Positions 5,794 to 54,743 of a stretch of 64,000 nt of DNA are shown here, piece after piece. A model generated the notes under the pieces. That model was not told the DNA's origin and did not search any database. It saw nothing but the letters and a program-made list of their open reading frames with translations. Numbering within the stretch: the stretch's first letter is position 1; each line of letters starts with the position of its first letter. The position numbers and the translations under genes are program-made. Origin of the DNA: Blastomussa wellsi (lineage: Eukaryota > Cnidaria > Anthozoa > Scleractinia > Plerogyridae); the NCBI GenBank assembly GCA_947652115.1, contig OX393564.1, positions 15,906,824 through 15,970,823 of the forward strand. Reading direction: 5' to 3'.

Positions 5794-8401
5794 ATGGCCT
5801 CCAGAGCCTTGCTTATTCTTTGTCTCGTTGCGCTGTTAACACCACTCTGGGGGTTTCCTTTACCAATGCAAGATGGTATGATTTGATTATGTTTCATTAT
5901 TTTCACACCTATCTAGTTACCGTTTTTTGACTACTCTTCGGCACTGTTAACTTGATTTTAAAGTTCGTTTTATCTTATAATCTGAAGAAACAAATGCAGC
6001 TCAAAAGAGGGCAGTTCGTTGCCTCATGTCACAATCCGAATTACTACAGTTAAATTAGTTCTCATTATTTAGTTGGCAGTTGTCTTCTAGAATAAGACAT
6101 TCTGGTAACCTTTATCCGACGCAATATATATTGATTACACAATTGAATTTCTTTCCATATCATTTATAAATTTAATTACTTACACTGAAAGTGTAGATTT
6201 CTTAAACAATACTTTTGTGGAGGCTTAAAGCAAGTTAACAAATGTTTGCATTCGGTGAAAGGTTTGCTACGGGTGACAGTTGATGCCAAGATTTAGCTGC
6301 AATATTTGCTCTTTTCATCGAAAACGTATTATTTCATTTTAACGCTGCCGAAAGGCTTAAAGATTCAAACTAACGACTCAAAACGTTCCTATTTTTTCCA
6401 AAGATATAATGGACGACAGTGCAAGTGGCGAAAGTGGCAGTGGAGAGGAAGGAAGCTTAGAAAATGAAAGTGGAGACGACAACGATGGTGAGATAACTGA
6501 AACCAGCTTTCACTTTTTTATTCAAAAGAGTTCAGTTTTCATCACTTATATTCTGCGATCTGAGTTTCTCCTTTTGATGAAAACAAAAAAGTTTCGCCAT
6601 GATCGAGATGCAAAAAACTTTATACTTTTCCACTTTATACCTTTGGCAACAGGCATCTTTCAAATGCAACGCAGAGGATAAAATCACTTTCTCTCATCAG
6701 TGACGTCTGAACTCCGCGTTATAAAGTGTACCGAATGTGTTACGAAAATCATTGGTTTGAATAAAAATTCCAGCATTTAGTTATTTTTCAAATTCAATTT
6801 TATCAATATCACTTGCAATTCACACGTCACTTTTCTCTTGGACGGAAGTGTTCGAATTATGCTCCATTTTTCAGAAGCTTAGAAGATTCATAACTATACA
6901 CAAAAATAGTCTGTTTCTTAATTTGTAATCTAACTCGATATTCGAGTATAAATAGTGAAACTTATATGGAAATATTCAGGGATATTTTGAAAAAAGGAGA
7001 AATTTCAGACCTTTCATGTTTTCTAAGAAACTAACTGTTGAGGTTTATATTACACCACTGACAAATTTAAGATTAAATCCCGCCATTTATGTAGCTTTGA
7101 AATTTTCCACGTATTAATCACATGCCATTTGATCTCATGATGCAGATAACGAGCTGAGCGGAGACGAGATTGGTGAAGACTCAGGGGATGGCAGCGGTGA
7201 TGAGAATGACAGTGAGAGAGGTGAAGAGTCTGAGGGCGACAGTGGTGATGGAAATGACAATGAGAGTGGCGAGGAGTCTGGAGATGACAGTGGCGATTTA
7301 AATGGCAATGAGAGTGGCGAAGAGTCTGGAGATGACAGTGGTGATGGGAATGACAATGGCGAGGAGTCTGGAGCTGACAGTGGTGATGGTGATGGAAATG
7401 GCAATGGCAATGAGAGTGGTGAAGAGTCTGGAGATAACAGTAGTGATGCAAATGACAACGGCGAGGAGTCTGGAGCTGACAGTGGTGATGGTGATGGAAA
7501 TGGCAATGGCAATGAGAGTGGTGAAGAGTCTGGAGATAACAGTAGTGATGCAAATGACAACGGCGAGGAGTCTGGAGGTGATAGTGGTGATGGAAATAAC
7601 GATGTGTCTGGAAATGACAGCGGTAACGGAAATGCCAATGAGAGTGGGGAGTCTGGAAGTGACAGCGATGATGGAAATGACAGTGAAAATGGCGAAGAGT
7701 CTGGAAATGACAGTGGTGATGAGAATGACGACGACAGTGACGAGGAGTCGGCAAATGACAGCGGTGATGAGAATGACAACGACAGTGACGAGGAGTCGGC
7801 AAATGACAGCGGTGATGGAAATGGCAATGAAAGTGGCGAGGAGTCCGAAGATGATGACGGTAATGATGGAAACGAAGGCGATAGTGACGTGGACTCGGGA
7901 GATGATAGCACTGATGTAGATGAAGGTGAGAGTGGTGGTGATTCAGAAGATGAAAACGGTGTTGAAAATGACGATGACAATAACAGTGATGGTAGTTTGG
8001 ATTCGGGAAATGGCGACACTGAGGATGGCAATGACGAGGAATCAGGAAATGAGAGCAGTGATGAAAATGGCAGTGATAGTGCTGAGGACAATGATGATGG
8101 AGGCAATAATGAAGATAGTGGGGAAGAGCCAGGTGAAGACAGTGACGATGGAAATGAAGACAGCGGAGATGAAGGCCGTGATGGTGATGGAAACGACATT
8201 GCCGATAATGACTCCCAATATGTACAAGGCTTAAATGACAGAGTAATTGACGAATTCGGAAGTGGATTGGATGACTTAGGCATACCACAAGGTGCCGATT
8301 TCGAACAGTTTCTTTCGTCTAGCGGATTTACATTTAATGGAGGATTTGCTTCGATATGTATGACTACACTAATATGCTTACTTAGAAACATATTCTACTA
8401 G
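5794..8401 (+). CDS. Secreted Ser/Gly/Asp/Glu-rich acidic protein (gene A)
   Basis: Three exons fit GT-AG rules with phase-1 introns: 5794-5875, 6404-6487 and 7146-8401, giving 473 residues. Exon 1 encodes a signal peptide (MASRALLILCLVALLTPLWG, then FPLPMQD). The start is AAAATGG. Exon 2 adds 28 residues rich in Ser, Gly and Glu. Exon 3 encodes about 360 residues of Ser-Gly-Glu-Glu and Asp-Asp/Gly-Asn repeats with almost no Lys or Arg and no Cys. It then gives a less acidic segment (GLDDLGIPQGADFEQFLSSS) and a hydrophobic tail with ICMTTLICLL at the very C-terminus, a possible GPI or membrane anchor. The mature protein is a strong polyanion expected in the extracellular space, where Ca2+ or mineral binding is likely by analogy with coral secreted acidic proteins. 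Exon 3 contains perfect in-frame tandem duplications. No catalytic domain is visible. Long frames on the opposite strand of exon 3 are shadows. Confidence 0.85.
7361..7564 (+). repeat. Perfect 102-bp tandem duplication inside gene A exon 3
   Basis: Bases 7361-7462 recur at 7463-7564, by eye without a mismatch. Each copy encodes 34 residues beginning EESGADSGDGDG. A second, 48-bp duplication lies downstream (7736-7783 repeated at 7784 on). Both keep the reading frame, so length variation between alleles is expected. Confidence 0.85.
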
Positions 8402-8690
8402 TTTTCTCACTGTTTTTCTCGATGACGACCAAATACGTGGAAACGGATTCGAATTTCGCCGTGCGAAATTGTGATACATTTATGGTTAACTGAGTCAAAA
8501 GCAGACTAAAAAAATATGTAGCGAACGTGTAAAAATGTTAAACGAACTACGTCTGTGTTAAGATGAACAGAACGTTTTTGATACTTTCTAAGTCCATAAA
8601 GATTGCAAAATATCTATTTACGCCCGCAGTAGAAAGAATTATATTCAATTTCTTGACAGCATATTTTTCCAAAATATGAACGGTTTTGTA

Positions 8691-8696
8691 AATAAA
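8691..8696 (+). terminator. Poly(A) signal of gene A
   Basis: AATAAA about 290 nt after the gene A stop codon, in AT-rich sequence. A second AATAAA lies near 8782. Confidence 0.45.
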
Positions 8697-8699
8697 TAT

Positions 8700-11600
8700 T
8701 TTCCTGCATTTTATTTTATAATGATAATAATCTATTTTATTTATTTTACAGTGAGAACTGTTCGTCGCACTCTTAGATAGAAAATAAAAAGTGTATACCT
8801 CTTCACAGCTCAATTTTATTTGTCTTGGTGATTAATAGGGTTGAAAGTTACCTTTTCTCTTTAGAGAACACCTCCCAGTTGATTTCAATGGTGCTAGGTC
8901 ACGGAATTTTTGGTCCCTTTGTTTATTTTTGTAAACTAAGAGTTCCAAACTTTAAATTGGTCGAGCAACAGACTCTTGTTGCTAAACGTACAGCCACGCA
9001 ACATGCAAGGATAATTTCCAAGCATCGCAAATGACTTTTCACACAAAAAGAAATGAATATGAAAAAGGGCTGGTCGACTTGCTACCCGAAGCCATCTCTT
9101 GCTTCAATTTTGGACCCAATATTATAAAGTGGATCAAAATGTCACGTTTAAGACCGGGATTGTTTGGCACCAAGCCAGCTGGAAAGGTATTCCCACCTAG
9201 TAATATTTGCTACGGAACGAGTGCAGCAAGCGATCAGCAGTTATAATCAGAATGTATGAGAATTCTATGCAAAATCGAGATTTGACGGAACTCGCTACGT
9301 GGCGACCAGAATGCGCTGCGCGGCGACCAGGATGCAATGCACGGCGACCAGAATGGGCAAACTGTCATCGGCCCCATCGGCCTGCCCTCTTTTAGGTGAT
9401 CCTCGAAGTTCAGAACCTTTACGTGAGTGTTAAAGAGACAAACCGCGAAGGAAATAATAGACGGCAATACACAAGCTACGAAATTCAGAATCTTCAGTGG
9501 CCGCGTTTTCACGAGCGTTTTTCAAGTCGATTAGCGAGTGACAACCGGAAATCTCGTGAGTGGGAATCTTTGAACCGTGAATGCAAACAGATTGGTAAAC
9601 TTGAGTTCAACCAGTAGGCAAGTTACAATGTCAGCTCGAAAGTGCGTTTTCCGATAGTTTTGCGGTTTTATGGATACTTGTGTAGCAGTAGACTTGCTAC
9701 AAGTTGAGCTCACAGAGAGCGAAGCGCGAAAGCACTGGGATCAACTGCCAAACCGGAAACGAGAAACGAACGACTTTGAGAAAGTCCAGTGCAGCAGCTT
9801 CTCGCACCGCAAACAACTTAATAGTAAATATTTTGTGGGTGACGGCAGGAAATAGATTGATGCTTTTGTTGGTGCGGCTTTGACAAGTTTTCACGTATTC
9901 CCATTGAAATTTTACAAGCATTTTGAAAACTTAAAATAATCTTATCGGCGTTCATACATTTGCCCTTCAATCGCATGCAGTATAACATAAAGTTAACAGA
10001 CAGGCAAAATAGAAAAAAAAAAATAACCGCAGCAATTTCATATCCTTGGGCTACACTAGTTTTAACAAATATGGTGATCTTGGTTTCATATTTAAGTGTA
10101 ACTATGAGGTCAAAAACCTTCCATTGTTTTATCCAGAATTATTAGAATACTTCAGTAACTGAGCAGTGCTTATGGTGGAGAAAAACAAATGAAATTTATG
10201 CTATGAAACAACCAAGACATAACAATCGAGACCAAGATGCTGTTTTGGAAAACTCGGTTTGAACGAAGAACATTTTTTTGCGCAAGACTTGCTTACAATA
10301 ATGGCAATTTTTATCACTTCCAGAGATTAATGAAAAATTTGGAATCGATGTCAACTAACTGCAGCACCCTTAAATTAACTATGCTTTGGGTGTACAACAA
10401 AAGTACACGGAATATACTGCTCGGTGCATATGAAAAATATACTATGCATGTATTTGTGGTAGTATACAAAATGTATATATTCATAATGGAAGAGGCAATA
10501 CCAAACGTATACATCTTTTGAACCAACCGGGTATGACAAGAAGTTTACTTTTTGCAAATGATTTTGATAAGGGCTTCCTTCAAATTATTGCTGTTATACC
10601 AATTTTATAAGTAAAGAAAACTGCACTGCAAACCACACTCTCCTCCGAAAACCTTCTATCAGCTTCAGATAGGTTTCTTTTAACTGAAGACAACGGCCTA
10701 CTTCGATGAAATGTGTTGTAAACATTATTACATGCTAACGAATGCTCTGTGACAGGGCCTACGGGAATAAAAAAGTGGAAAGGAAGATTCTCTAATATTT
10801 TCAATGACTGATCAGAAGCAATTTTGCCAATATTTACCAGATTACTAAAAATCCAAACTAAGAGCCTGTTTACATGGAGATGGGGTTACCCGTCTAGGCG
10901 GGTAACCCGGGTAGACGGGTAACCCGCCTTTCCATATAAACTCTTATTTTTTAAGCCTCGCGTTTACCTGACAGGTGGGGTGACCGGCCAAGGCGGGTTT
11001 GCCGGTCTGCCATGCCGGATCAAACCTAGTTCGTAGGTTTTGTAGTCTCTCTCTTGCCGTAGAAATTATTACCACGGGTAATGCATTCGCCACGGGTTTC
11101 CATCGTGCATTTGTAAGCAGGCAGTTGCAGGGACCAATATGGCGGAACTGTTCATACCAATTGACCTCGTTAGCTGAAAAGTCACTTTTACAGATGTTGC
11201 ATCTCGAATGCAATCGCAAAATGTGACTCTACTAGCTAAGATTTTTCAGAATCCCTCGGAACAAATATCTGCCATGGGTTTGGGACGCAATTTTGCTGAA
11301 TCTCCACGGGTTTTGCTGTCTGGCAGCAGTAAAAACATTAAATGCAACCAAACGAAGCACAGTTCTCTCGTGTTTTTTCGCCTTTTTCGCCTCTTTGTAG
11401 CATGTCCTTCAAGAGTCAATTTCCCAGGACGTATGTTACCTGTTAAGTCCAGCAGTTAGGAATGAGCATTTTTCGCACAAACTTATGTATCCATGCAGGG
11501 TCGGAAGAAAAAATAGACGTCGGATGTGGCAGGACGTGGAAGACAAACTTAGGCCACGCAGAAAAAATGACGAACTAAAACCTCCAAGTGAGCTCAAGGA

Positions 11601-13599: not shown

Positions 13600-14190
13600 T
13601 TATATTGCTTGTTTTATGGATAAATAGATTGTAGGTCATTATATTTCCTACCAATACATTGTTGCAAGTTTGGTTATTGTTGTTTTAATGGTTACTGGTG
13701 ATGTTTTTTTCCCATAAACTACATAAATTTATTAACATACGTGTACGAGACGTTCCTGTTACACAGAATGTTAATTACATTATTAATTGTAATAGTTTCA
13801 TATGGTTTGTTAATAAATAGATTACAGAGAATTATATTTTCTACCATTACATTGTGGCAAGTTTGGTTATTGTTGTTGTAATGGTTATTGGTGATGTTTT
13901 TTCCCCATAAATTTATTAACATACATGTACGAGACGTTCCTTTTACACAGAATATTAATTGCATAATTGTAATAGATTCATATGGTTTATGCATAAATCG
14001 ATTACAGATCATTATATTCTCTACAAATACATTGTTGCAAGTTTGGTTATTGTTGTAATAGTTTCTGGTAACCTGTTTTATTTTTTCAAAAATTACGTGA
14101 GTTTAATAACATACAATATGTTGCTGTTACACAGAATTTTAAAACAATGCTGTATGAATGTACATTGTCAAATTTACAGATAAATATCTT
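13600..14190. repeat. Tandem repeat, three copies of a 180-193 bp unit
   Basis: Starting near 13619, 13813 and 13993, the same block recurs: ATAAATAGATT, then CATTACATTGTTGCAAGTTTGGTTATTGTTG-type sequence, a TGGTGATGTTTT stretch, CATACGTGTACGAGACGTTCC and TTACACAGAAT. Copies differ by small substitutions and indels, and a fragment of a fourth begins near 14180. It is AT-rich and noncoding. Confidence 0.85.
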
Positions 14191-18817: not shown

Positions 18818-20586
18818 ATGGCCTCAAAAGCTTTTCTTTTACTTTGTCTTTTGGCTTTGTTGAAACCGATCTGGGGTATTCCAGGTGAGAGATAATTTTA
18901 TATTTTAAAAGACCTAATTAACAAGAATGCTGGCTGAGTTCTTGACGCTGCTGTTTAAAAGCTTTGTGGGAGCTTGACTCCTGTGACATCTGAATCCGTC
19001 ATTAAGACCAACCATAGGCAATGATAACTTTTATTTCCTGGGTTGTTGAACAACGAAAATGTGGTAGACAGTTTCTGGTCAATCTGTGCTCTGCTTTATG
19101 ATATGCAGAAATACTGCATTTTGAAGTCAAATACTGAATTTGTACTGAGTAAAAAACTGAACTAGATTTCAAATGAAAATGAAATTTCACCATGTAAGCT
19201 AAATTGTTTCTAATTGAGTCTTCGATGTCAGCTACGTGAGAATCAATAGGTACAAACAGTAGCTTAAAAGGTTTTTCACAGTTGGCGAAAATAAAGGTGT
19301 CCAATATTGTAATAAAAAATTCAAGAATCGTGATTTCTAGAATGAAGGTAAATAAATAAAAACGTCAGAGGTAACGTACGCATTGATGCAGTTTACAGCG
19401 AATTTTGCGTATAATTTAATTAGTTACAGTTCAAGCTTACAGTTAACCATTGGAAAGAAGCTATTTAAGCAATAGAGGACTTTTTCCGTGTCTACATAAC
19501 CTCATCTTAACACTCGGGGGTTTGGGAAATTTCGAGAAAGTTGTGCAAACCCTCGACTACGTGTTGGGTTTGCATAACTTTCGAGAATTCTCCAAATCCC
19601 CGAGTGTTTAGATGAGGCTATGTGAATAAGGAAAAAGACCTCTATTGCTTTTATGAAACGTCACAGCCGCGTTTACAGACTCTAATCTAAACACACCTAT
19701 CAACCAATGAGAGCACGCGTAGTATCTCAGTTATTTTATAAATATATATATCGAACAAACATTCTCAGAAGTGGAAAGGAAAATGTCATAAATGTGAAGA
19801 TAGAAATAAACGTATCTCTTATTTTGGTTACTAAAAATGAACTGGAGTTCTTTGCGATGCGGCAGAATATCCGAAATGGCTTAATGTCGTTATAGTCTCA
19901 CTTTTCGATTTGTCTATTGTGATTAAAAAAATACGTATGGACGCATTTCTGCTGAACAGATTCATTTACTTGACTGCTCTTTCTCATCAAGTATACAATA
20001 ACCATACTATTATTAACCTTTCATGGGAATCCGTCACGACTCAGTTGTTAAACAAGAACAACGCTATATTTCCGCCAGTTTTTCCTAAATTTAACTTTTC
20101 ATGTTCGTGTTTAAAGATGAAGATGGCGACGACGACGATGAAGATAGTGGAGATGACAATAATGATGATGGTGGCGACGACGACGATGAGAACGAAGAAG
20201 ACGAGGGCGAGGGCGATGATGATGATGATGATAACGATGACGACGACGACGACGATGATGATAATGATGATGATAACGACGACGATGACGAAGATGATGA
20301 TAATGATGATGATAACGACGACGACGACGAAGATGATGATGTTGATGATGATGATGATGATGATGATGATGACAGCGATGGCAACGACAGCGGTGACGAC
20401 AACGATGATGACGACAGCGGCAGTGCTGATGATGATTTTAGCAATGACGTAGATGGTTTAGATGACATTAGCTTGGAACGTTTAATTAACTTGCTTAGCT
20501 CCCGCGGATTTACGCTTATCGGAAGATATTATTGGATCTGTTTTAGTTTAACCGCTTACTTTATATTCAGCACAATGTGCATATAG
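18818..20586 (+). CDS. Secreted poly-aspartate-rich acidic protein (gene B)
   Basis: Two exons, 18818-18884 and 20117-20586, with a phase-1 GT-AG intron, give 178 residues. Exon 1 encodes only a signal peptide (MASKAFLLLCLLALLKPIWG, then IP), nearly the same as genes A and D. Exon 2 begins DEDGDDDDEDSGDDNNDD and continues as about 115 residues more than half Asp, with Glu, Asn, Gly and Ser, coded by GAT/GAC triplets. The C-terminus is not acidic. LDDISLERLINLLSSRGFTL leads to a hydrophobic tail with ICFSLTAYFIF, which aligns with the end of gene A. A secreted or surface-anchored Ca2+-binding polyanion is the likely role. The 1.2-kb intron carries a foldback element. A small missed exon in it cannot be excluded. 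Confidence 0.82.
19470..19657. mobile_element. Foldback/MITE element in gene B intron
   Basis: The two halves are inverted copies. It starts TAAGCAATAGAGGACTTTTTCC and ends GGAAAAAGACCTCTATTGCTT. Inner arms are CATCTTAACACTCGGGGGTTT and its inverse AATCCCCGAGTGTTTAGATG. Pairing covers about 80 bp per arm with few mismatches, so the intron RNA would form a long hairpin. Noncoding. Confidence 0.8.
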
Positions 20587-29358: not shown

Positions 29359-30462
29359 ATGGAATCAAAAGGCTACCTTCTCCTCTGCCTCTTAGCTCTG
29401 TTGGCAGCAAGTTGGGGCAGTCCTTTTCCAATGCCAGATGGTAAGACCGCTTCATTTCTTGCTCTTTCTTCACCATTCTAACCCCTTTAGCTTTGTCTTT
29501 TGGCTTCTCGTCACACTTGGCACAGCATGCCATCCCGAAACTTTGCGGCATTCCATTTTACAATTTGCAACTTTGGACTATAGTAAAATTTCCCTTTGTG
29601 TCTCAGTAACGTTTCTGCTGAAGGCAAATTATATAGTCATTTGTAATGTATTGACCGTGTCCTTATAATATGATAGTAGTCGATACCTCTATCTTAATGC
29701 GTGATACTGTGAATGCCAATTTCCCGAGATAAAATTGTAAAATTGTAATAGATTCGTTCAAAAATTCTGTGATAAGATACAATCTTCTTAACTTGTGTTG
29801 ATTTTAGACGGAGACTACAATGGTTAAATCGTGTTCTTTTTCTGTTTTACACATCAGATGATGACTGGGACGACCGTCAAGAGGGAGATGATTACCACGA
29901 TCAAGGGCGAGATAGAGAGGATGCTGACGATGATGAAGGTATGAACAGAGAGAACAGTGACCATAATGACGAACGTTACATCAAAGGAAACGACGGTAGA
30001 AATAAAGGAGACGACAACAGCGATGACTACAACAACAGACGAAATGATAACAATGATGATAATGATCAGTACAGCAGCAAAAGAAAGGATGACAATGACA
30101 ACTACAGCAACAAAAGTGAGTACAACAGCAAAATAAAGCACAACAGTGATGACTTCGTAGACGATACTGAAAATAAAGACTGGGGAGAAGAGAGGAGAGA
30201 GAAAGGAAATTTTGATGATGGCTTTGACAATAGAAGAGAAGAAAATGGCGACTATTTCGACAATGAAGACGGAGGGAAATGGAAGCAAAACAAGAAAGGA
30301 AAGAACGGCAAGGACGAAAGAAATGAAGACGAAGAAGATAATGGCAGGAATCTCAACAGTGTACAGGGAAGTCAATTCCGCATAACCTCTGCTGGCATGT
30401 CCCCATTTAATGCAAATTTTGCCTGTATAGTTTTAGCTGCAGTTATCTACTATATCCTGTGA
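29359..30462 (+). CDS. Secreted Asn/Asp-rich mixed-charge protein (gene C)
   Basis: Exon 1 (29359-29440) encodes the signal peptide MESKGYLLLCLLALLAASWG followed by SPFPMPD, ending in phase 1 at GTAAGA. The main exon (29858-30462) follows a CAG acceptor and begins DDDWDDRQEGDDYHDQG. A 15-bp in-frame micro-exon (29808-29822, encoding DGDYN) is possible between them, giving 228 or 233 residues. The mature part is rich in Asn, Asp, Gly, Tyr, Lys and Arg, so it is a hydrophilic polyampholyte, less negative than A or B, and probably disordered. The C-terminus again has a Ser/Gly segment and a hydrophobic tail (FACIVLAAVIYYIL) like A and B, suggesting a surface anchor. The role is unknown. Secretion and matrix function are inferred from family and context. 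Confidence 0.8.
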
Positions 30463-34623: not shown

Positions 34624-37600
34624 ATGGCGTCGAAGACTTTGCTTCTTGTTTGCCTTGTGGCTTTGTTGAGACCACTCTGGGGTGCTCCCTTGCCAATGTC
34701 AAATGGTAAGATTTTGTCGTTTCTATTGATTGTTAACTAAATAATTGCGCAGCTTAAGATACTAAACCCGTCAAAGACGATTATACAGTTCTTCCTTGAG
34801 ATTAGGTACCTTAAAATGATTGTAGCAACTTCTTCTTATGTTAATTTAGCTACCTGTAGAATTAATTGCTAACTAAACTGATCATATTTTCTCATTTATT
34901 CCAAACCATCGATGGAATTATGAATGCATTTCTAGACCTTTCTTGACGGTACATCACTGGATTTGATTTCTGTCTCCTTTGTTCGGCTTTAGAGGCTATG
35001 ATGGTCTGTGTTCTTGTCGAGATTAATATTTAAGCTCTTTACAATGCTATTATCACGTTGCCTGCGATTAAAGTCAAATCTCCAATAGCAGGATTTTGTT
35101 GTCTCGCAAGTACACTCAACTCCGGGTCAATATAGAGTACGTAATCAGAATTCGCTGCCACGTATCCAAACGGGTAAGAAGCAATTCCTTTATCATTCAG
35201 TGAGACTGGTGAACTATGAAATAAAATGTAAAAAAAATTGAGGAAAACTAAATAACGTAACAAAAGAAACTTTATCTATTAAGAAGTATGTGAAACTTTC
35301 GCATCATTTTTTTGCATTTAATTTCTTCATCACAGAAGAAACATTTTTGTCTTATCAGAATAAATAGCGCGAACCATTAACATTACTTTAATTTGTATCG
35401 CACGCCTTGGAAATCTTTATAAAATAACTAACAGAATCGCGCTTAGCTTTAATTTAAACCCTGACAATATTCATCAGAGTATAAACGACATGGATTGGAA
35501 TTGACAGCATGCTGGAAGCGCCAGTTTAAGTGCCATAAGATATTCGGCTAACGTGTTTACATTCTTCTTGGCGCAATTCAGGTCACGTGATGATTTATCG
35601 GGAATTTCAAATAACATTTCAAATAACATTTTTTTGGTTAGGCACACCAACATGCATATTATTTTTTATTTGAATACATCAGGACTCTGTGAATTGTTCT
35701 GTTCGTACCGCAATCTTGTCCTCTCAGTTGCGTGCTACAAATTCCACAATTGTAACCGCCCATCACGTGGTCTAAATTGGGAGGCAACATGGATATAAAC
35801 ACTGGGCGGAATCCGTCTAGCCTCATCTTGAATTCACTGCACAGGTCATGTGCAATTTTTCAAAAGGGTTAAAACCTTAGTTTAATTCTATGTAAGTTGT
35901 TCACTGTTACACGTCACATCACGCCATTCGGTGAACTCGACTGTTTGGTCTCGAGAACACGTCGCTTGCGACTTGTGCACTTTCTGTGCCATGTCAAAAG
36001 CGGAATCACAGGCTGAGGATACAAAAGCACAGAACTCAGTCCGTTTCATTCTTCTCCATCCTTAACCACCCTTGTTCCATATTGGTTTATTGTCCCCTCT
36101 TTGGTGTTTTTATTCCTTAGCAAACAGTTTTTTGAAGTTAACGTTTCCTACATGTTAAGGATAATTTTGTAAGTCACAAAAAATGACTCAAAATATCGTC
36201 ACGTAGCTCCTTTAGATACTTTTAGTAACGCGATGCTCTTTCCAGTGATACTCAATGTTTGACAGTAACACAAAAAATGAGATTTGCATTTATATGCGTG
36301 GAATCCCGATTTATCGAACCTTCTATAAATCAACGGGTGCGACAAATCTGGGGTAAAATTGCAATGTTAGACTATCAACAGGGATTTTCGAGAAACGGAA
36401 GCATCATGAAAAATTTAGGCAAAACCATTTTGATTTTATATTTTTTGTTTGCAACCATTCTCTGCCAAATTTTCTAATCCGAAAAAGTCCGTTTAAGAAA
36501 ACACCCTTCCATTTTTCACTGAGTTGAGTCATTCTTCGCGTTGTTCCTTGCAGCCTGGGGCGATTTATTAAATTTATTTTACAATGTGTCATTTAGAAGA
36601 GGAAAATAAGGCAGAAGAATATCCTGACGTTGATTATCCGGAGGCGGACGTGGAATTCGAAGACATGGACCAACCGTTGGATGACGAAGAGGATGATTAT
36701 GACGGTGAGTACATGACGAAGGTATTTTTTTAATTGTTCATGACAACGGCTTGCAGCCTAGTATAATGAATATGGAATATGGAATATGGAACAGTGTCAA
36801 ACATGTAACCAACACAACAGTTTAACCCACAGGCGCAATCTTTGGTTCCTAGCATGATGATGGAGTGAAAATTGCTGAACGGGAACTCCCTATTTTTCCG
36901 AGACAAATGCCTGCGTTCTTTACTTTGCATGCCGTTTGCAGTACGGAATCCTGTATTTATGTAAACGAAGTTTAATCGGTTGAAAATAAGCAGTTGTATT
37001 GGCAAATAATGTGAGGCAGGCTAGCAATTTGCTTGTGGCCAAAACAGTACAAAAATTTTTACAGAAGGAAATAGTAAGAAAAATCAAGAAATGGTTAAAA
37101 GTAATGGGTGGTAACGAGAAACGCGCGCACAAGATTTTCTTTTAATCTCAAATTGAGATGAAGTCGCTCAGAGAGGAAAAATTTTAATTTGCTTTCTCTC
37201 TCTTAAGCGATAGAACGGGTTTCAATTGAGCGTCGTAAAACCAATACTAAAGTATTACTTTGGTCAATCACAAAGGACAGAGACAATCCAGTGAACCAAT
37301 AAAAACTCGAAATAACTACACGTAGCACAGGAAAACATGCGTGCGTAAGCCATGAGTGTTTTGGTTTTACTCCTGATTGGTTGAAGAAGTGGCGCGAGAT
37401 TTGTAAACTAATCACTTAGCGAAGTAATAGAAAACCAAAGAAAACGCAGAATTGCTCTCAACATGGTCTTTCCAGGCGAATGCACTTATTCCGATACTGT
37501 TAGCACCTGTTTAACCAAGCTGTAGCAAATCGTTGTCAAAGTGTCTGCCACGTTTACTTTTACAAGTCGATGCAACAATTCGGGTCTTGTGAATTTTCTG

Positions 37601-38044
37601 TCGCTGCAACAGAAATTCTGCCGCTGCGATCAGTCGCAAGAAATCAAACCCAGGGACCCGTTTCTCGAACGTTCGGTACACGTAAAGCTACCTCTGTTTG
37701 AATTCAAGATCGATGATTTACTAGCTTTGAATGCAATACAATAAAAGTATCAGTTAATGGTCATGAAACAAAATGGACTGGTTTGTAAGCGTGCTACTAC
37801 CTTCAGTTTTTCATTTCAAAGTTTGGGGCTTTGGGCCCCAGGCTTGTTTGACTTGTTTCTGCCGTAAAACAAACGTGTCGCCTAGTGTGTGGTGAAATGC
37901 TGAATGTTTCCCTCGTCTAAAGATAGCGTGAATTTACATTTTTTGTCAATAGATTATGCTGCTGATGACGTTTCTGACCCATTCGACGACGAGGAAGACC
38001 CTGAGGAACCAGATATTCCAGACGATGTAGATTACAGTCCCTAA
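34624..38044 (+). CDS. Short secreted Asp/Glu/Pro acidic protein (gene D)
   Basis: Three exons, 34624-34705, 36597-36704 and 37953-38044, with phase-1 GT-AG introns, give 93 residues. Exon 1 encodes the signal peptide MASKTLLLVCLVALLRPLWG and APLPMSN, very close to gene A. Exon 2 starts EEENKAEEYPDVDYPEADVE and ends EEDDYD. Exon 3 encodes DYAADDVSDPFDDEEDPEEP and ends DDVDYSP. The mature chain of about 70 residues is mostly Asp/Glu with Pro, Tyr and Val. It has no repeats and lacks the hydrophobic tail of A-C, so it is predicted to be freely secreted. The introns are long (1.9 and 1.2 kb). A donor-like GTAAGC 14 nt past the stop may mark a 3'UTR intron or alternative end. Confidence 0.78.
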
Positions 38045-42619: not shown

Positions 42620-43288
42620 GGAACTATTTCAAACTCACCTAACAATGAAATCATTATTTCATACCTTGGCTCTCAAATGTGGCTTTACCGTAGATATTCA
42701 CTATTTAGACCGTCCGATTTTTCGAGAAACGGCATCATTTCAATGTTTGACCCATGAAACCATCATGGGTCACCTGTACCTCAGCCAATGCCATCTACTG
42801 TATAACTTGCACTCTTTGCAAAAAGTTATACATCGGCGAAACAGGGAGACGACTTGGCGACCGATTCCGAGAACACCTTCGTGACGTAGAGAAAGACGAC
42901 AAAAATGCATCGAAACCGGTCGCGAGACACTTCAATCTCCCAAATCATTCTAAGCAACATATGGCAGTCTGCGGCCTTTCCCTTCACCAAGGAAACACGG
43001 AAAGCCGTAAAACTCTAGAACAAAAATTTATTTTTCAAATCGGCACTCTTAATCCTCACGGTATCAACGAACGCTTTTCATTCAACTAATTTATTCCCAA
43101 GTTTTCACGTTACCAGGCACCAGCCAATAGCGAAGCTCCATCTTTCTGTATATAAAGACACACGACGCACAATTCCTTGATTCGCTCCGACGAAGGGCTA
43201 ACGCTCGAAACGTCAGCACTTGAATCTCTTTACGGTGGCCAATTGACATTATCAACCCAGTTGATAAAACCAAATTATATTGTTATAC

Positions 43289-43326: not shown

Positions 43327-43332
<6 letters not shown>

Positions 43333-44188: not shown

Positions 44189-46805
44189 TCAGTCATCCTC
44201 TTCTTCCTCTTCTTCTTCCCCTTCTGGTTCTTCTGGAGCTTCTGTTTCCTCTGGCGCTTCTGTTTCCTCAGGTGCTTCTGTTTCCTCTGGAGTTTCAGTC
44301 GCTCCCGGGGCTTCCGTTTCCTCTGGCGCTTCTGTTTCCTCTGGAGCTTCAGTTGCTCCCGGAGCTTCTGTTTCCTCTGGTGCTTTCGTTTCCTCAGGCG
44401 CTTCTGTTTCCTCTGGAGCTTCAGTTGCTCCCGGAGCTTCTGTTTCCTCTGGTGCTTCCGTTTCCTCTGGCGCTTCTGTTTTCTCTGGTGCTTCCGTTTC
44501 CTCTGGTGCTTCCGTTTCCTCTGGCGCTTCTGTTTCCTCTGGTGCTTCCGTTTCCTCTGGCGCTTCTGTTTCCTCTGGAGCTTCAGTTGCTCCCGGAGCT
44601 TCTGTTTCCTCAGGTGCTTCAGTTGCTCCCGGGGCTTCCGTTTCCTCCGGGGGCTCTGTTGTCCCCGGGGCTTCAGTTTCCTCTGCAGGGTCTGTAACTT
44701 CTGGCCCTGCAGTTGGAGCTGGGGCTGGAAACCTGTTTGAAAATATAAATGGAATAAAATTCACGAGAAACACTTTATTTTTACTGCGCCTTGTTGTACG
44801 GAATACTCGAGTTAAGATAAAATCAACAGCCAAGGGTTGGGAAGACTAATGTAGTGTTTAAAATAGTTTGATTTTTTTAATTGTTTGTGGATTTCTTCTT
44901 CTATTCCATGCAGCAACTCTCATTTGTCTTGTTGATATCTTGCTTGTTAGTCTCCGTTGACTGATTTTTCAAAGGTTTCGGTTAATACATATACGTCATT
45001 CATTTTGAAAAATTTATCCTATGCGTTTCAATCTTTCCCATCCTTAACCACCCTTGTTCTCGTTTGCTATCACCTTTGAGGGATTTTTCTTCCTTTGTAA
45101 ACTATTATTTAGAGGTTTGCAACAAAAATGACTCAAATTTATTCATAATATCGTGACGGAGCTCCGTTAGGTGATCATTTCGTCATGTTTTTGTGCTATC
45201 GACCTTTGTAACCAAATTGAAAATGGGAAAGGAAAAGGAGAAAATTTCTTCGTTTCAATATTTGTTTCAAAAGGGCGAAGTAGTAATACATGTTTTGTGG
45301 TGAACACTAACTTAAAGGGACACTGTCACGAATATTTTTCGGCTTTTTTAGTAAAGTGGGCACAATATTATGACTTCTGAGTTCTTTCACTCGTACACAA
45401 AACGCTTCTAGAACATAAAGAGATGGAAATCAAGCAGTTGTTGAAGGAAGAGGGTGACCGTAAATAGTTTTCACCAGTTTTTCGAAATCACACGGACAAA
45501 GCCTGACTTTTTTAAGTTGAAATTTTAAGTTCCTGATGGTATCATAATGATATCACTCTATATTTAGCTTCAGTGCACTGGTATAGTATTTTAACAAAAC
45601 TTGACCACTGTTTTTAGGTTTCCATTGGTGTAAACACCTTTTCTGGCTGTTGAATTTTTAAAGTTATTAAAACCCGTCGCAGTGACCCTTTAAACAGCGT
45701 AGAACAATATTACTTTACGTCATACCACGCGATTTAAAAAATGACGGATTTTTCCAAAAAAAGTGTTTGCGTGGAAAACAAAATATTGGTAAAACATATA
45801 TCAATGGGATAACAACAAGAATAAAACCAATAAAAGTTGTTTAGGGAAAAGTACGGATTCTTGCAGGCAAGGGTGGCCTCACCTTCAACGAATTGAATAT
45901 TTGTATAATTAATTAAAAGATTGTAACGTCAAGAAATCCGAGAAGATAATAGAATATTACTTAAAACACACTAGAAATGAATACATATTGCAGGCGGTTT
46001 TCTTTTGCTTTTTATTGTTGTTATATACTTTCTGCGTTAACCAAGAAATGCGTCACAATACTATAATATACTTTACTTAGGTATGTCAACTGAAAGCAAT
46101 ATTAAAAAAGTGTAAAGCGCGATGCTTTGAAATTCAAGTGCTTTATCGAATTAACGAGGCCGTAGGCGAGGTGCAATTCTTCGGTGAGAGGAAGTTTTTC
46201 GGGTTAGTATTATATTGTGCCCGACTTATTTGCTGTACCTTACCCCAGTTTAATTTGGTGGATAAAAGATTTTACACTAACGGAAACAATGATCACAGCG
46301 TGAATCGACAAATTAGCCACTTACGGAACTGGAGATAGTAAGGATATTACTCAAACAGTGTCCACAAGCAAAATCTGCTAGTTTTCATTCATTTAACAAA
46401 AAATTTTGCTGAAAGGCTCAATTGTCAACGTAATAGTACAGACCAGCTGGCTGAGCAATTCTTTAAGCAATCAATATTTTACAACTGCCGCCCTTGTTTT
46501 AGGCGAAAAACTGAGTAGAAAATTTCTCAATTTTTTTTATTGATTGACTACGAGGACAGTATACAGTAAGCTTGGCTAATTATATAACAAAAAATAATAA
46601 TCTCGATTTTTATTGCGTAATAATACCTGTACATGTTTCATGCTTCAAAGTCCTTTTCATAGAATACGAGAGGAAATAATATAGCTTATTATATGAATAT
46701 TTTTTCGACTTACCTAGGCCTGCCTGTTGAGGAAAAGGAACAACCGAAAGCTGTCCAATGAACAAATGTAGCGAGACAAAGCAACATAAAGATTTTCGAA
46801 ATCAT
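44189..46805 (-). CDS. Secreted Glu/Pro/Thr/Ala repeat acidic protein (gene E)
   Basis: Two exons on the minus strand, 46805-46714 and 44732-44189, with a GT-AG intron (phase 2), give 211 residues. Exon 1 encodes the signal peptide MISKIFMLLCLATFVHWTAF, then GCSFSSTGRP. Exon 2 begins FPAPAPTAGPEVTDPAEET and becomes about 25 copies of a six-residue unit EAPEET, alternating with EAPGAT, coded by 18-bp DNA repeats. It ends [14 protein letters not shown]. The mature protein has roughly 40 percent Glu and no basic residue after the first few. It has no hydrophobic tail, so it should be freely secreted. The many Thr are possible O-glycosylation sites. TATAAATTG and CCAAT boxes lie upstream. Open frames on the + strand here are shadows of the repeat. 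Confidence 0.8.
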
Positions 46806-46870: not shown

Positions 46871-46911
46871 CAATTTATAGATGAGAGAATCATGCTCTTG
46901 GCTACTATTGG
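46871..46911 (-). promoter_or_regulatory. TATA and CCAAT boxes of gene E
   Basis: On the minus strand CCAAT (46907-46911) precedes TATAAATTG (46871-46879) by 27 bp. The TATA box ends about 65 bp before the ATG. The block resembles the one before gene F (ATCAACCAATA against ATCAGCCAATA, then AAGAG, then TATAAATTG). Confidence 0.65.
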
Positions 46912-49915: not shown

Positions 49916-50056
49916 CTAGTCCATCGTAGGGTTACCCCCAGCATTATTTTGTTGGTACCCATTTATGCACCTGGGTAGAGAGAGGCACTGTGCCTAAGAA
50001 CACAACGCAGTCACCCGGCCATGGCTCGAACCCAGACCGGAGTCCAGTACGCTAAC
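49890..50056 (-). repeat. tRNA-derived SINE, copy 2 (inverse, partial)
   Basis: Read on the minus strand it has GGGTTCGAGCCATGGCCGGG, then the family body through CACCTGGGTGCATAAATGGG-like sequence. It lies tail to tail with copy 1, so the two could pair as an inverted repeat. Confidence 0.7.
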
Positions 50057-50062
50057 CAAACT

Positions 50063-50262
50063 ATAGTTGATGAAAATTTGGTTGAGCCTATGACGTCAAC
50101 TCTTAGCTAATTGCATACTTTAAAAACCTGAATATTTCTGTGACGAAAACTGATATTTAAAAAAAAAAATAACGGCATTTTTCTTCTGATGAAGACACCT
50201 TTTAGTGCCTTAAAGTGGCTTAGATTGGAGGCCTGCGAATTTCGTCATAGTAGCATTTTGAA
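50063..50262 (-). repeat. Single arm of the 21276-22080 foldback family
   Basis: AAAATTTGGTTGAG.CTATGACGTCA, TTAGCTAATT and GAATATTTCTGTGACGAAAA match the inverse of 21280-21480. Only one arm is present. Confidence 0.6.
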
Positions 50263-50374
50263 CTGATAATTCAATTGACAGTTGCTAGCTGTAGGCGTTA
50301 TTGCATGACTCATACGCCATGAAATCTGTACTCCAGCTTAACCAAGTACGAATGTTTCTGTTTCAGAAAACCCA

Positions 50375-50402
50375 CTAATGAAAGGATTATCCCCGAAACG
50401 TC
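50375..50402 (+). ncRNA. Hammerhead-ribozyme-like motif
   Basis: CUAAUGA - AGGAUUAUCCC stem - C - GAAA - CGUC follows the hammerhead core order, with G5 changed to A. It probably marks the remains of a Penelope-like or similar retroelement. Stem I was not verified, so activity is unlikely. Confidence 0.35.
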
Positions 50403-50811
50403 TGACTTTTTTAACAATAGTTTAAGTACTCCTATATCTAATGTAAGATCAGAGGGGCACTGATTTGTCTTTGCACAAATTTAGAGTCACCCTTGTCAAA
50501 ATAAAAAAAGGCATTACTATTTTTACTCCGAACATATTTCTTATTCCGAACACAATGTCTTTTCACATTTTGTTGAGTGCTACACAGGAAAATGGACTTT
50601 GTAAGGTAATAGGATTGGTAACTCAAAATAATGTTTTGGTCGCTTTTCCACGATCAACGCAACTCGATTGGCAAATAGTTACAAAGCTAATCGATGCATG
50701 AGCAAGAATTTAGATGAAAGGACTAGGCATAAAAAGCGAATCCAGCGAAACGGAATGAGACAAATGATAAGTGCTTTCATGAATTGCCAAGCGTATGTGC
50801 ATTTATCAGCG

Positions 50812-51105
50812 AGAGGCGCAGTGGCCTGATGGTTAGTGCGTTGGGCTCAGGATGGGGCGGTCCGTGTTCGAGCCCCTGGCCGGGGCGCTGCGTTGTGTTC
50901 CTAGGCAAGATACATTACTCTCACAGTGCCTCTCTTCACCCAGGTGTATAAATGGGTACCGGCGAATTTACTGCTGGGGGGTAACCCTGCGATGAACTAG
51001 CATCCCATCCAGGGGGAAGTAGAAATACTCTCTACCGCTTCATGCTGCAGAAACCGGGACAAGCTCCGGCCTGATGGGCCAGTAGGCTCGTATGCAGACC
51101 TATAT
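50812..51105 (+). repeat. tRNA-derived SINE, copy 3 (best preserved)
   Basis: GAGGCGCAGTGGCCTGATGG holds the A box, and GTCCGTGTTCGAGCCCCTGG the B box. The body GGCAAGATACATTACTCTCA, GTGCCTCTCTTCACCCAGGT and GGGTACCGGCGAATTTACTG follows. Both Pol III boxes are intact. Confidence 0.8.
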
Positions 51106-51829
51106 GCATTTATCCATATTGTGTTTTAAATACTAGTATGATTTTATGCGAGTAAGTGCGGATTCTAACGCAGCAGGTATAAATGTAATGAACAGTACGT
51201 AATTATGATTCATTGTGGATCATTTTGTTTGTTTGTACACTTACGATCTTTTACGATCTTAACCTTCGCGACATTTTGGCCTGCCAGGCGTTTATCCGTT
51301 TCCGTTTCACACTATATTTATTTTATTTATTTATTTATTTATTTATTTATTGACAATTTATTGTTTCTCCCCCTTTTCATTAGTATTCATAGACGTGTTT
51401 TTTTAATAGACAAACGGTTTCAAGTTGTTCTCTGGGCTTAAAGGAGCAGTGTCACGATATTTATAGTCATTTTCTCATTTACTTTCAAATTGAAGGAAAT
51501 CCAAAAGTAAGAGTTTTCTAACGCCGAAAAGGAACAACGGAGTAATAAAATCCCGAAATTATATAAGGAGTGCTTCGAATGACAAAAATATAGACTGGTT
51601 ACAAACGACAAACTTGAAAAAACTTGCCAGTTTTTTCAAGATGAGTTGTCCGTGACGAAGCTCCTTTAATCATGTGTTACTGCGTACCTAGTTCTTTGCA
51701 ATAAGGTATAAATGGCATAAGAACTGTGTCCGAACTACATGTTGCTTGTCAATTTTTTTAGTGCGGGGAATTCAAGAATAGATTTGGGCAATTTGGGCTC
51801 GGCAGCAACTGCAGCATGTTGGCTCAGGA
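51106..51829. other. Region downstream of gene F; (TTTA)n microsatellite
   Basis: About nine TTTA units at 51315-51352. On the minus strand they also supply AATAAA motifs, but they lie about 480 nt past the gene F stop. No gene. Confidence 0.5.
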
Positions 51830-54743
51830 TTAGTCTTCTTCTTCTTCTTCTTCTTCTTCTTCTTCTTCTTCTTCTTCTTCTTCTTCTTCTTCTTCCTCTT
51901 CCTCTTCCTCTTCCTCTTCCTCTTCCTCTTCCTCTTCCTCTTCCTCCTCCTCCTCCTCCTCCTCCTCATTTTCTGGTTCTTCAGTTTCCGGTTCTTCAGT
52001 TTCCGGTTCTTCAGTTTCTGGTTCTTCAGTTTCCGGTTCTTCATTTTCTGGCTCTTCAGTTTCCGGTTCTTCATTTTCTGGCTCTTCAGTTTCTGGTTCT
52101 TCAGTTTCCGGTTCTTCAGTTTCCGGTTCTTCAGTTTCTGGTTCTTCAGTTTCCGGTTCTTCATTTTCTGGCTCTTCAGTTTCCGGTTCTTCATTTTCTG
52201 GCTCTTCAGTTTCCGGTTCTTCATTTTCTGGCTCTTCATTTTCTGGTTCTTCAGTTTCCGGTTCTTCAGTTTCCGGTTCTTCAGTTTCTGGTTCTTCAGT
52301 TTCCGGTTCTTCATTTTCTGGCTCTTCAGTTTCTGGTTCTTCAGTTTCCGGTTCTTCATTTTCTGGCTCTTCAGTTTCCGGTTCTTCATTTTCTGGCTCT
52401 TCAGTTTCCGGTTCTTCAGTTTCTGGTTCTTCAGTTTCCGGTTCTTCAGTTCCCTCTGGTGCATCTGTTCCTTCTGGGGCGTCTGTTTCCTCTGGTTTTT
52501 CAGTTGAAACTGAAACAAATGAATAAATTAATCGAAAATTAATGAAGTAAACTGAAGCGTGCTCTTCAGATTGCTTCAGCTCGTCGTTCGCAACTTATTT
52601 ACTTCCCAGTAAAAATAGTTTAATTCCTACCCTTGCTTTTACTTCTAAAACCAGCTCATCCTTCTCAATTTTCGTGCTTATTTAGACGCACTCAGGGGCT
52701 TTCTTTTTCGCAAGAACGCTTGTTTCTGTGTTCACATGGTTATTGTTATTTGCAGGCCCCTGATACGCACGCTTTTAGGGAATGGGTTTCTTGGACGCTC
52801 TAAACGATACAGGGACTTCTTTTAGTCCATTTGATATGCTCTTTTCTGTTTCAATGTTATGTGTATTCCCATCGTCCGTATCCCCTGAACAGTCGCGAAG
52901 TTACGAGACTAGTTTATTTTTTGCTCTATGTACCCGTGATTCTGCGAGTTTTTTGTTCTATAAGTTTGTATAAATGCCCACACAAAAACATGTTACAGGA
53001 AAGTTGCCTGAGTAACCGGCGGACGGACGACGAAAAAGGAACTTTGTCGCGAAACCCACCAGCTGCGCCGCGGCGTTTTTGTTATTTATAATGTTAATAG
53101 CTAATCTACGTCATCGTCTATGAATGAATACAACTGATATAAAAAAAAGTAATCCTCTTATCCTGTATTTGAGACATGATCACGATTAAACGGTACAAGA
53201 AGTATTTCAGCAACCCAGTAATAAACCCAAGGAAGTTTGTAATTGATCATTTGGGCTGCAACATTACAGTTTATTTTCAAGAAGTGTCTCTTCACAATTC
53301 ACGTTTTAAAAGACTCCCAATATAATACTTAAATACCTTGCATTCAATTTTCCTTCAAGCTGATTGAATTTTATAATTTGAAAAGAACATCAACGATTGA
53401 TTCGAGAGTGGATCAATACAGATAAAAAAAATAAACAGTAAGAAAGTTTGTTTTTTCAAGTGAGGTGAACTTTCCTTGTCCACTGTTGACTTAAAGTTTG
53501 TAAAAAAAATTGACACGTTGTATTTGTGAAGTGCCCTTGATAAGAACGATATCTTTTATGCATAATTCAGCAATCCAAGTAATTTGAAACATATTGCGTC
53601 GGTAACTTTGTTCAATGGGATGATATATTAGAACAATGTACGATAGTGGACAAAAATTAATATTGCTATATCAGATCTGTTGAAGACGGTCTATTACCTG
53701 CCGGATCAGAATAAAGCCAGGTTAAAGTGTCGTAATGATTTGAGACAGCGTTTTGTATTTTCAGGTTAAAGTGATGTGTAGTAATTAATAATACTTAGCG
53801 GCACTGCGTGCCGACCAGCCCACGTGTGTGGTCACAAAAATCGTCAAATATCACCACCGGCACGGTCGTCGACTTCGTTGACAACCATTTCTCTTAATCT
53901 GCAAAGAGCTTCAAAGTGGAAAGTCGATCGATACTTTGGTATTTTAACATCATTTGGATCTTTTTTAATATTTGTACGCTTTTCTTTTCGTTTGGTTGTT
54001 AACTTAAAATCAGGTCATCAAAAGATTTTTTTGTAAACGCTTTGTAGAAAAGATACTAAGAACACAGGAAAAAACGGAGAATTCGCAAGCAAAGAATTGT
54101 TTGGAAAACAGCGGTGAGATTCTGACAGATTGTAGGAGCCTGAGAAAAAAAAACCAAAACACAAAGACATGGACCAGTGTACATGTTTTAGTAAAGAAAC
54201 TAAACAGGCTAAATATTGAGCTAAATATTTGTGGTCTTACTCATGATACTCACAAAAACACTCATAACTCACGGTTCTTGTAAGATTAGAAACAAAGCGT
54301 TGGGAAGCGTTGGTTTTTGTGGAGGTAGGAAAAACCGGAGAACCCGGAGAAAAACCCTCGGAGCAAGGACGAGAACCAACAACAAACTCAACCCACATAT
54401 GACACGTGATCGAAGTTAAACCGGACTTTTTTAAACTATTACTTACAAGGCGAGCTTTCAACGAAATAAGTTGTCCTTGAAGTCTTTTTTTTTTTAAATA
54501 TACAAATAGGTTCCAAAAGCTTCATATCAGGTTTAAGGGACGTTTTTAAACAAACATATTAATCAGTTTTCTGATAAGGGCCAAGAAGACAAAATGTGTA
54601 ACACTGTGTAGTTTTCTTGTGTTAAGTAATATGTAACATACTTTTTGTTTTACAGCTAGCTCACCTTGTTGAGGCAAAGGAGCAGCTAGAAGCTGTCCTA
54701 CCAGAACACAAAGACAAAGAAGAAATATTTGTTTAGAAATCAT
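51830..54743 (-). CDS. Secreted Glu/Pro/Thr repeat protein with poly-Glu end (gene F)
   Basis: Two exons on the minus strand, 54743-54665 and 52509-51830, with a phase-1 GT-AG intron, give 252 residues. Exon 1 encodes the signal peptide [20 protein letters not shown], then APLPQQ. Exon 2 starts [20 protein letters not shown] and continues as about 32 copies of the pentapeptide EEPET or EEPEN (15-bp DNA repeat). A run of about 44 consecutive Glu and a final Asp close the protein. There are almost no basic residues and no hydrophobic tail. It is closest to gene E in signal peptide, repeat style, strand and promoter, so E and F are probably sister duplicates. The Lys/Arg-rich frame on the same strand is a frame-shifted reading of the repeat and is rejected. 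Confidence 0.8.
54230..54440. repeat. Probable dispersed repeat in gene F intron
   Basis: GGAGAACCCGGAGAAAAACC, then AACTCAACCCACATATGAC, resembles from memory a repeat common in marine invertebrate genomes. It also carries in-frame open stretches. Boundaries and family are uncertain. Confidence 0.3.

What the first reader, a model, noticed from the sequence alone, without database searches (positions are those of the whole stretch)
5794..54743. A six-gene cluster of secreted acidic proteins with one shared architecture
Genes A-F each have a separate signal-peptide exon (M-x-S-[KR]-...-LC-L), an intron, and exon(s) encoding a low-complexity acidic mature chain. The signal peptides are near-identical in A, B and D, while the mature parts are unrelated in sequence. 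This suggests tandem duplication with a conserved secretion module and free evolution of the payload. The products fit the known class of secreted acidic skeletal matrix proteins of corals, but a full locus with this range (Asp-, Ser/Asp-, Asn/Asp-, Glu/Pro/Thr-rich) would be notable.
Basis: partly seen in the sequence, partly recalled or inferred. Interest (0 to 1): 0.9.

Follow-up and report, generated by a model that had tools for sequence, protein, structure and literature searches.

The report
Coral cluster of acidic secreted proteins
A stony-coral chromosome carries one family of at least thirteen neighbouring genes that share a conserved export tag but encode very different, extremely acidic proteins, probably for building the skeleton, much as vertebrates do with their tooth-and-bone protein cluster.

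Summary
The six genes are real as gene models, but they are the middle of something larger. One chromosome (C5) holds 13 similar signal-peptide exons over 238 kb: six on +, then seven on -. Twelve read as complete genes of 93-1668 aa; all 15 introns are GT-AG, 14 are phase 1. Genome-wide, all 19 hits of three signal-exon queries (three being the queries themselves) fall in this cluster. The signal peptide is the conserved part: among seven paralogs synonymous sites differ at 0.67, non-synonymous at 0.26, so the duplications are old. Six of 13 genes have a TATA box about 70 bp upstream. The C-terminal tail of A matches those of B, C and outside gene Y, so the mature chains are not wholly unrelated. 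The stony coral Desmophyllum has a relative of gene D with an identical 20-residue signal peptide. The likely role is mineral-binding skeletal matrix. It works like vertebrate SCPP clusters but is not one (introns phase 1, not 0). Expression and presence in skeleton are untested.

The parts
5794..5875 (+). Gene A exon 1: signal peptide MASRALLILCLVALLTPLWG + FPLPMQD, phase-1 donor
6404..6487 (+). Gene A exon 2 (acidic), phase 1 on both sides
7146..8401 (+). Gene A exon 3: Asp/Ser/Gly/Asn-rich repeats, then hydrophobic C-terminal tail and stop; protein 473 aa
18818..18884 (+). Gene B exon 1: signal peptide
20117..20586 (+). Gene B exon 2: poly-Asp chain (48% Asp) and hydrophobic tail; protein 178 aa
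29291..29299 (+). Gene C TATA-type box (TATAAATTG), 68 bp before ATG
29359..29440 (+). Gene C exon 1: signal peptide
29858..30462 (+). Gene C exon 2: Asp/Asn/Arg/Lys mixed-charge chain with hydrophobic tail; protein 228 aa
34624..34705 (+). Gene D exon 1: signal peptide, 20/20 identical to that of a Desmophyllum pertusum protein
36597..36704 (+). Gene D exon 2 (acidic); an acceptor 3 bp further on is equally possible
37953..38044 (+). Gene D exon 3 (acidic) and stop; protein 93 aa
46871..46879 (-). Gene E TATA-type box (TATAAATTG), 74 bp before ATG
46714..46805 (-). Gene E exon 1: signal peptide, phase-2 donor (the exception)
44189..44732 (-). Gene E exon 2: (EAPEET)n repeats; protein 211 aa
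54803..54811 (-). Gene F TATA-type box (TATAAATTG), 68 bp before ATG
54665..54743 (-). Gene F exon 1: signal peptide
51830..52509 (-). Gene F exon 2: ([10 protein letters not shown])n then poly-Glu; protein 252 aa, 62% Glu

Best explanation
This is one old, tandemly duplicated gene family of a stony coral: at least 13 genes in a convergent 238-kb array (six on +, seven on -). Each gene is a small promoter (a TATA-type box in about half) + a first exon with a conserved signal peptide + a phase-1 intron (phase 2 in E) + one or two exons encoding a low-complexity, strongly acidic chain, and in five of twelve readable genes a hydrophobic C-terminal tail. SHOWN from sequence: the gene models, the shared signal exon under purifying selection, the tail match of A with Y, B and C, the shared box, the restriction of the members found to this locus, and a relative in Desmophyllum. 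INFERRED: the signal peptide sends the proteins into the secretory pathway; tailed members are held on the cell surface by a GPI anchor or a C-terminal membrane span and can be shed, while tail-less members are released; the chains bind Ca2+ and carbonate surfaces (Asp, Glu, possibly phospho-Ser), and so control nucleation, amorphous precursor and crystal growth in the calcifying space. Repeat slippage lets length and composition drift freely between constrained ends, which would explain why coral acidic proteins seem to lack relatives. Likelihood: family and architecture about 0.9; skeletal-matrix function about 0.6.
For: Twelve full models, GT-AG, 14 of 15 junctions phase 1, net charge -28 to -725. 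All 19 signal-exon hits (3 are self) in one cluster. pS 0.67 vs pN 0.26 over 7 paralogs, A vs D 0.69 vs 0.11; mean local score of signal exons 35.4 (shuffles 13.7) but of introns 20.0 and upstream DNA 21.6 (upstream shuffles 19.1). TATAA[AG] box in 6 of 13, background 0.036 per gene, binomial 3e-6, motif and distance chosen after looking. Tails A-Y, A-B, A-C match. Desmophyllum P0002: 20/20 signal residues, mature alignment score 132 against a shuffle maximum of 105.5. P0001 runs from signal peptide into acidic chain without a break in a 910-base contig, while the residues of P0003 and P0004 read on past the position of the predicted donor. No Pfam family in the acidic exons of A (exon 3), B, C, E or in P0001/P0002; F only far below cut-off to Extensin_1. 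Known coral SAPs share the plan: signal peptide 1-20, G[D]7S repeats, predicted GPI site or C-terminal membrane span (PMC4043741, passages), and SAP2 is among the most abundant skeletal proteins of Acropora digitifera (PMC4890752, passages).
Against: No transcript, proteome or localisation data for this species. A database search with a D-type signal peptide returned no named SAP, SAARP or CARP (4 candidates), and one with the C-terminus of A returned nothing (10 candidates); both searches need exact 5-residue words. Y and I scored no better than background in the first signal scan (26 against 27) and rest on their phase-1 donor, neighbouring acidic exon and, for Y, a weak genome hit (E 0.03). 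The tail of K does not match the others, and C matches only A. E breaks the phase rule and its signal peptide is the furthest from A of the six in the window. The blind acceptor test put 3 of 12 top acceptors out of frame. Seven of 13 genes lack the strict TATA box. Acidic secreted proteins can also serve mucus, granules or adhesion.
Confidence: 0.65

Rival explanations
1. The family is real and secreted, but its job is not the skeleton: for example Ca2+ buffering in secretory granules or mucus, cyst or egg coats, or adhesion.
For: No skeletal evidence was obtained here; the architecture only says secreted and polyanionic. Acidic chains with E/P/T repeats (E, F) resemble spacer- or mucin-like chains more than Asp-rich mineral binders.
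Against: Poly-Asp and Asp-Ser-Gly repeats with a C-terminal membrane tail match the plan of Acropora SAP1, found in skeleton (PMC4043741 passages). The named relative found is in a stony coral.
Confidence: 0.25
2. These genes are the counterpart (orthologs) of the Acropora SAP genes, so the kind is already known and only the locus is new.
For: Same order of parts: signal peptide, Asp-rich repeats, terminal hydrophobic span.
Against: A D-type signal-peptide query covering lengths of about 126-400 aa returned no SAP record, although the N-terminal SAP1 fragment (168 aa) falls in that range; whether that record is in the database was not checked. SAPs were reported only from complex corals (PMC6824150 passages), whereas the mitochondrial base composition here looks more like the robust clade (tentative).
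Confidence: 0.35
3. Much of it is non-coding: trinucleotide repeats next to decayed signal exons, with splice joins that look good by chance.
For: Repeats leave several frames open; 3 of 12 top acceptors are out of frame.
Against: Signal exons are under purifying selection; tails of A, Y, B, C match in the acidic frame; Desmophyllum P0002 and P0001 carry joined products; all 12 models are in frame with one stop.
Confidence: 0.05
4. Two families are mixed: A-D, Y, Z, J, K (PLWG-type signal) and E-I (mostly VGQL-type signal) arose separately and only sit together.
For: E/F differ from A (24% and 40% identity); E has phase 2.
Against: F and H keep the MxSK...LCL...PLP plan and phase 1; F-, D- and J-type queries all recover H, though weakly (E 0.22, 0.29, 0.26); the TATAA[AG] box at the same distance occurs in both groups (Z, C, K and E, F, I).
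Confidence: 0.15

Closest known systems
Secreted/skeletal acidic proteins SAP1 and SAP2 of Acropora (B3EWZ0/1, B3EWZ4)
   Same: Secreted, Asp-rich with Ser/Gly-Asp repeats; for SAP1 a predicted GPI site and a C-terminal membrane span (PMC4043741 passages).
   Different: No sequence match obtained; SAPs reported only from complex corals (PMC6824150 passages). Here 13 genes at one locus, including Glu/Pro/Thr types and a chain above 1600 aa.
Vertebrate SCPP / SIBLING cluster (DSPP, DMP1, IBSP, SPP1)
   Same: Tandem cluster of secreted, acidic matrix proteins; genes J and K resemble the DSPP phosphophoryn repeats (resemblance recalled, not aligned).
   Different: All SCPP introns are phase 0 (PMC7807025 passage); here 14 of 15 are phase 1 and one phase 2. 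Independent origin.
SAARP / CARP4-CARP5 of corals
   Same: Coral acidic skeletal proteins.
   Different: They keep a conserved non-acidic region shared with non-calcifying cnidarians and bivalves (PMC4890752 passages); no such region is apparent here and no Pfam family passes its cut-off in the five acidic exons scanned.
Calcarin tandem arrays of the sponge Sycon ciliatum
   Same: Tandem duplication of biomineralisation genes (PMC12419799 passages).
   Different: Calcarins are galaxin-like, di-cysteine proteins; these are acidic and poor in Cys (as read from the models).

Membership tests
Single tandem family (this locus) | Shared signal exon (MxSK...LCL...PLP plan, with departures in Y, I, K and E) ending in a phase-1 donor | tested here: met
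   13 signal exons; exon-1 donor phase 1 in 12 of 13 (E phase 2); Y and I at background score
Single tandem family (this locus) | Members detectable only at this locus in the genome | tested here: met
   19 of 19 hits (3 self) of three queries at C5:15.88-16.12 Mb, recovering 11 of 13 exons; E and I were found only by local scan, so diverged members elsewhere are not excluded
Acropora SAP family | Signal peptide + Asp/Ser/Gly-Asp repeats | tested here: met
   For A, B, Z, J, K: 5 of 12 readable genes; the others differ
Acropora SAP family | C-terminal hydrophobic span / GPI signal | tested here: met
   For Y, A, B, C, K: 5 of 12 readable genes; judged by hydropathy, no GPI predictor run
Acropora SAP family | Sequence homology to SAP1/SAP2 | tested here: inconclusive
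   Not returned; sensitivity limited to exact 5-residue words, and presence of the SAP records in the database not verified
Acropora SAP family | Occluded in skeleton | not testable with these tools
   Needs a proteome of this species
SCPP | All introns phase 0 | tested here: not met
   14 of 15 phase 1, one phase 2; criterion from PMC7807025
SCPP | Tandem cluster of secreted acidic proteins | tested here: met
SCPP | Descent from SPARCL1 | not tested
   No SPARC-like search was run
SAARP/CARP4-5 | Conserved non-acidic region between acidic regions | tested here: inconclusive
   None seen by eye in the models; no Pfam family above cut-off in the five acidic exons scanned; no SAARP sequence was at hand to align

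The most novel reading that the evidence does not exclude
Stony corals evolved their own SCPP-like locus: one chromosomal array is the source of a large part of their skeletal acidic proteins. The ends of each gene (export signal, and in many the membrane tail) are held by selection while the mineral-facing repeats drift freely, so the apparent orphan status of coral acidic proteins is an artefact of searching with the middle part. In the boldest form, the unusually conserved signal peptide is itself an address or processing signal for calcifying-cell secretion.
Probability: 0.4. Interest if true: 0.85.

Novelty: new variant of a known kind. Interest (0 to 1): 0.68.

Why it matters
Coral SAPs have been called coral-specific with unclear evolutionary origin (PMC4890752 passages). 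A single locus whose members are recognised by the signal exon and tail, not by the payload, gives a direct way to find orthologs in any coral, anemone or corallimorph and to test when the acidic toolkit arose. It also offers a strong parallel to the vertebrate SCPP cluster, reached independently (intron phase differs), in carbonate instead of phosphate mineral.

Tried and rejected
Searching with the C-terminus of A found nothing. Viral contigs held no relative of P0002. None of four signal-peptide strings occurs in the paper library. SCPP membership was rejected on intron phase. Recent duplication was rejected: synonymous sites are near saturation and introns score near shuffled level. A match to B's tail on C20 (E 0.17, one stop) was judged chance. 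Fluorescent-protein placement of the species could not be run because the machine was busy. Signal-exon searches with the I and E types and a search with the K C-terminus did not complete (I; E: 105; K: 106). Structure prediction was not used: the chains are low-complexity. PMC6214176 could not be read (paper cap); PMC12314368 held nothing on acidic or skeletal proteins in its main text.

Full report
WHAT IS THERE. The window is G000:C5:15906824-15970823 of a 368-Mb, 124-contig assembly. The six genes of the finding are present. I name them A-F: A, B, C, D on +, E, F on -. Exons are in the parts list. Window coordinates are used below also outside the window (negative to the left). Signal peptides were judged by eye and by similarity; no predictor was run.

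THE CLUSTER IS LARGER. I fetched 100 kb on each side. A scan for similar signal exons gave four more: Z at -26570+ (score 62), Y at -4727+ (26), H at 145570- (50), I at 161878- (26). Background reached 27, so Y and I were accepted for their phase-1 donor, a neighbouring acidic exon and their -VGQL- or -PLW- plan, not for the score. Genome-wide search with the signal exon of D gave 8 hits, with that of F 3, with that of J 8 (all candidates scored: 8, 3, 8). All 19 lie on C5 between 15880253 and 16118629; three are the queries themselves, the other 16 have E from 6.6e-7 to 1.0. They added G at 109670-, J at 194331- and K at 211809-, and recovered Y at E 0.03. The three searches recovered 11 of the 13 exons; E and I were seen only by local scan, so diverged members elsewhere are not excluded. 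A rescan of the 264 kb with all 13 as references listed no other candidate with a phase-1 donor above score 25, apart from a second Met inside H. So 13 genes span 238 kb, six on + then seven on -. Of the 8192 possible strand orders only 26 have at most one switch (arithmetic, 0.3%). This fits tandem duplication plus one inversion.

WHAT IS CONSERVED. Over the first 20 residues A/B match at 14, A/D at 15, B/D at 14. At DNA level the seven ungapped paralogs Z, A, B, C, D, J, K differ at 0.67 of synonymous and 0.26 of non-synonymous sites; A vs D 0.69 and 0.11. Over 28 pairs of eight genes, mean local scores are 35.4 for signal exons (shuffles 13.7), 20.0 for introns and 21.6 for 300 bp upstream (upstream shuffles 19.1). 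Upstream DNA is not quite random: 10 of 28 pairs reach the 95% level of the shuffles and three exceed all shuffles. So the copies are old and the peptide is held by selection. A box TATAA[AG] stands 68-78 bp before the ATG in 6 of 13 genes (Z, C, E, F, I, K), where 0.036 per gene is expected; binomial tail 3e-6. It reads CTATAAATTG in C, E and F and differs by one base in Z, I and K. The motif and distance were chosen after looking at the sequences, which weakens that number. Five of 12 genes (Y, A, B, C, K) end in a hydrophobic tail. A's tail matches those of Y, B and C (p 0.0015, 0.0025, 0.0010 by 2000 shuffles); Y-B gives 0.02; the other six of ten pairs, including all with K, are not significant.

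RELATIVES. A search with D (E<=0.1) returned 3 proteins among 43 candidates: P0002, 'hypothetical protein OS493_014057' of Desmophyllum pertusum; P0001 from a 910-base contig; P0003. A second search with a D-type signal peptide (E<=10) returned P0004 among 4 candidates. Signal identity to D over 20 residues: P0002 20, P0001 19, P0003 19, P0004 18. Mature parts: 37 of 71 and 36 of 69 aligned residues identical for P0002 and P0001, scores 132 and 113 against maxima of 105.5 and 96 in 1000 shuffles, so they are related beyond composition. The residues of P0003 and P0004 read on past the donor position with no acidic chain, as unspliced DNA would, whereas P0001 and P0002 join signal to acid directly. 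I read this as evidence, from relatives, that the join exists; P0001 looks like an assembled transcript, but its DNA was not seen and P0002 may be a gene prediction. No named skeletal protein was returned.

WHICH ORGANISM. The contig C124 (17380 bp) is the mitochondrial genome. Around cox1 the order is nad5 (3' part), tRNA with anticodon TCA (Trp; ARAGORN with the bacterial code calls it SeC), a short ORF that I take for atp8, cox1 split by an about 1-kb intron with a homing-endonuclease-like frame, tRNA-Met, large rRNA; nad5, atp8 and the intron frame were named by eye. That this is the standard stony-coral order is recalled; passages of PMC3989238 say that the order is nearly uniform in Scleractinia and distinct in 10 of 12 corallimorphs, and that robust corals are rich in T and poor in C. 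Here T is 0.40-0.45, C 0.12-0.16 and A+T 0.62-0.69 in three coding pieces; no complex coral was measured beside it. The size is near those of Colpophyllia natans and Dendrogyra cylindrus (17104 and 17299 bp, PMC12005156 passages; that both are robust corals is recalled). I conclude Scleractinia, probably the robust clade; the species is not identified.

HOW IT PROBABLY WORKS. Shown: a secretion signal, an acidic chain, in some a hydrophobic tail, one family, one locus. Inferred: secretion by calcifying cells; tailed members sit on the cell surface as GPI-anchored or membrane-spanning forms and may be shed, as proposed for Acropora SAP1 and others (PMC4043741 passages); free chains bind Ca2+ and mineral surfaces. 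Different payloads at one locus would allow a graded matrix: Asp-rich nucleators, Glu/Pro/Thr-rich spacers, very long Asp-Ser chains. The unusual point is that selection sits on the signal peptide, usually a fast-changing part (general knowledge). Explanations: a specific export or processing need, or gene conversion; the latter is disfavoured by synonymous saturation.

COMPARISON WITH THE KNOWN. SAPs of Acropora share the plan, but homology was not shown. SAARP/CARP proteins have a conserved non-acidic region, which is not apparent here. Vertebrate SCPP clusters work alike, but their introns are all phase 0 (PMC7807025 passage), so this is convergence, not membership. Passages of PMC4890752 on tandem SOMP genes in A. 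digitifera name laminin G/EGF and USOMP-1 genes, not acidic ones. PMC10236652 notes tandem clustering of calcification genes in general. In the listings of the ten paper searches and the passages read I saw no description of such a locus; most subscription papers and all supplements are outside what I could see, and several listings were cut short of all matching papers. All 15 papers opened were seen as found passages only.

VERDICT.

Noticed in passing
window-relative -22727 to -11466 (L016-L017), between genes Z and Y: The same short frame (MQEKRILWHCPCHFF... or near it) recurs seven times on the - strand about every 1.9 kb (first gap 1.75 kb), pointing to a 1.9-kb tandem array inside the cluster.
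   Followed up: no
window-relative 64001-69000, 71501-76500, 101501-109000, -65309 to -57810: Long runs of N of round lengths (5000 or 7500), withheld stretches or gaps; one probably hides the mature part of gene G. Left alone.
   Followed up: no
window-relative 79-93 kb (L020-L021): A stretch dense in frames of 150-440 aa on both strands; two frames scanned gave no Pfam match. Possibly a large mobile element; only observed.
   Followed up: partly
L010:6767-7477 (about -83 kb): Galactose-3-O-sulfotransferase exon (Pfam 5.9e-32) left of the cluster; a possible synteny anchor.
   Followed up: no
L044:2360-3097 (mitochondrial contig C124): A 245-codon open frame between cox1 and tRNA-Met, of unknown identity.
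   Followed up: no
59921-60134: 32-bp tandem repeat, 6.7 copies at 96% matches, open in all three forward frames; similar peptide frames on the - strand near 62.3 kb.
   Followed up: no
13613-14056 and 1943-2108: 180-bp and 36-bp tandem repeats in the spaces between genes.
   Followed up: no
56602-56994 (-) and 42751-43089 (+): Reverse-transcriptase fragment (below Pfam cut-off) and GIY-YIG frame (above it), typical mobile-element debris.
   Followed up: partly
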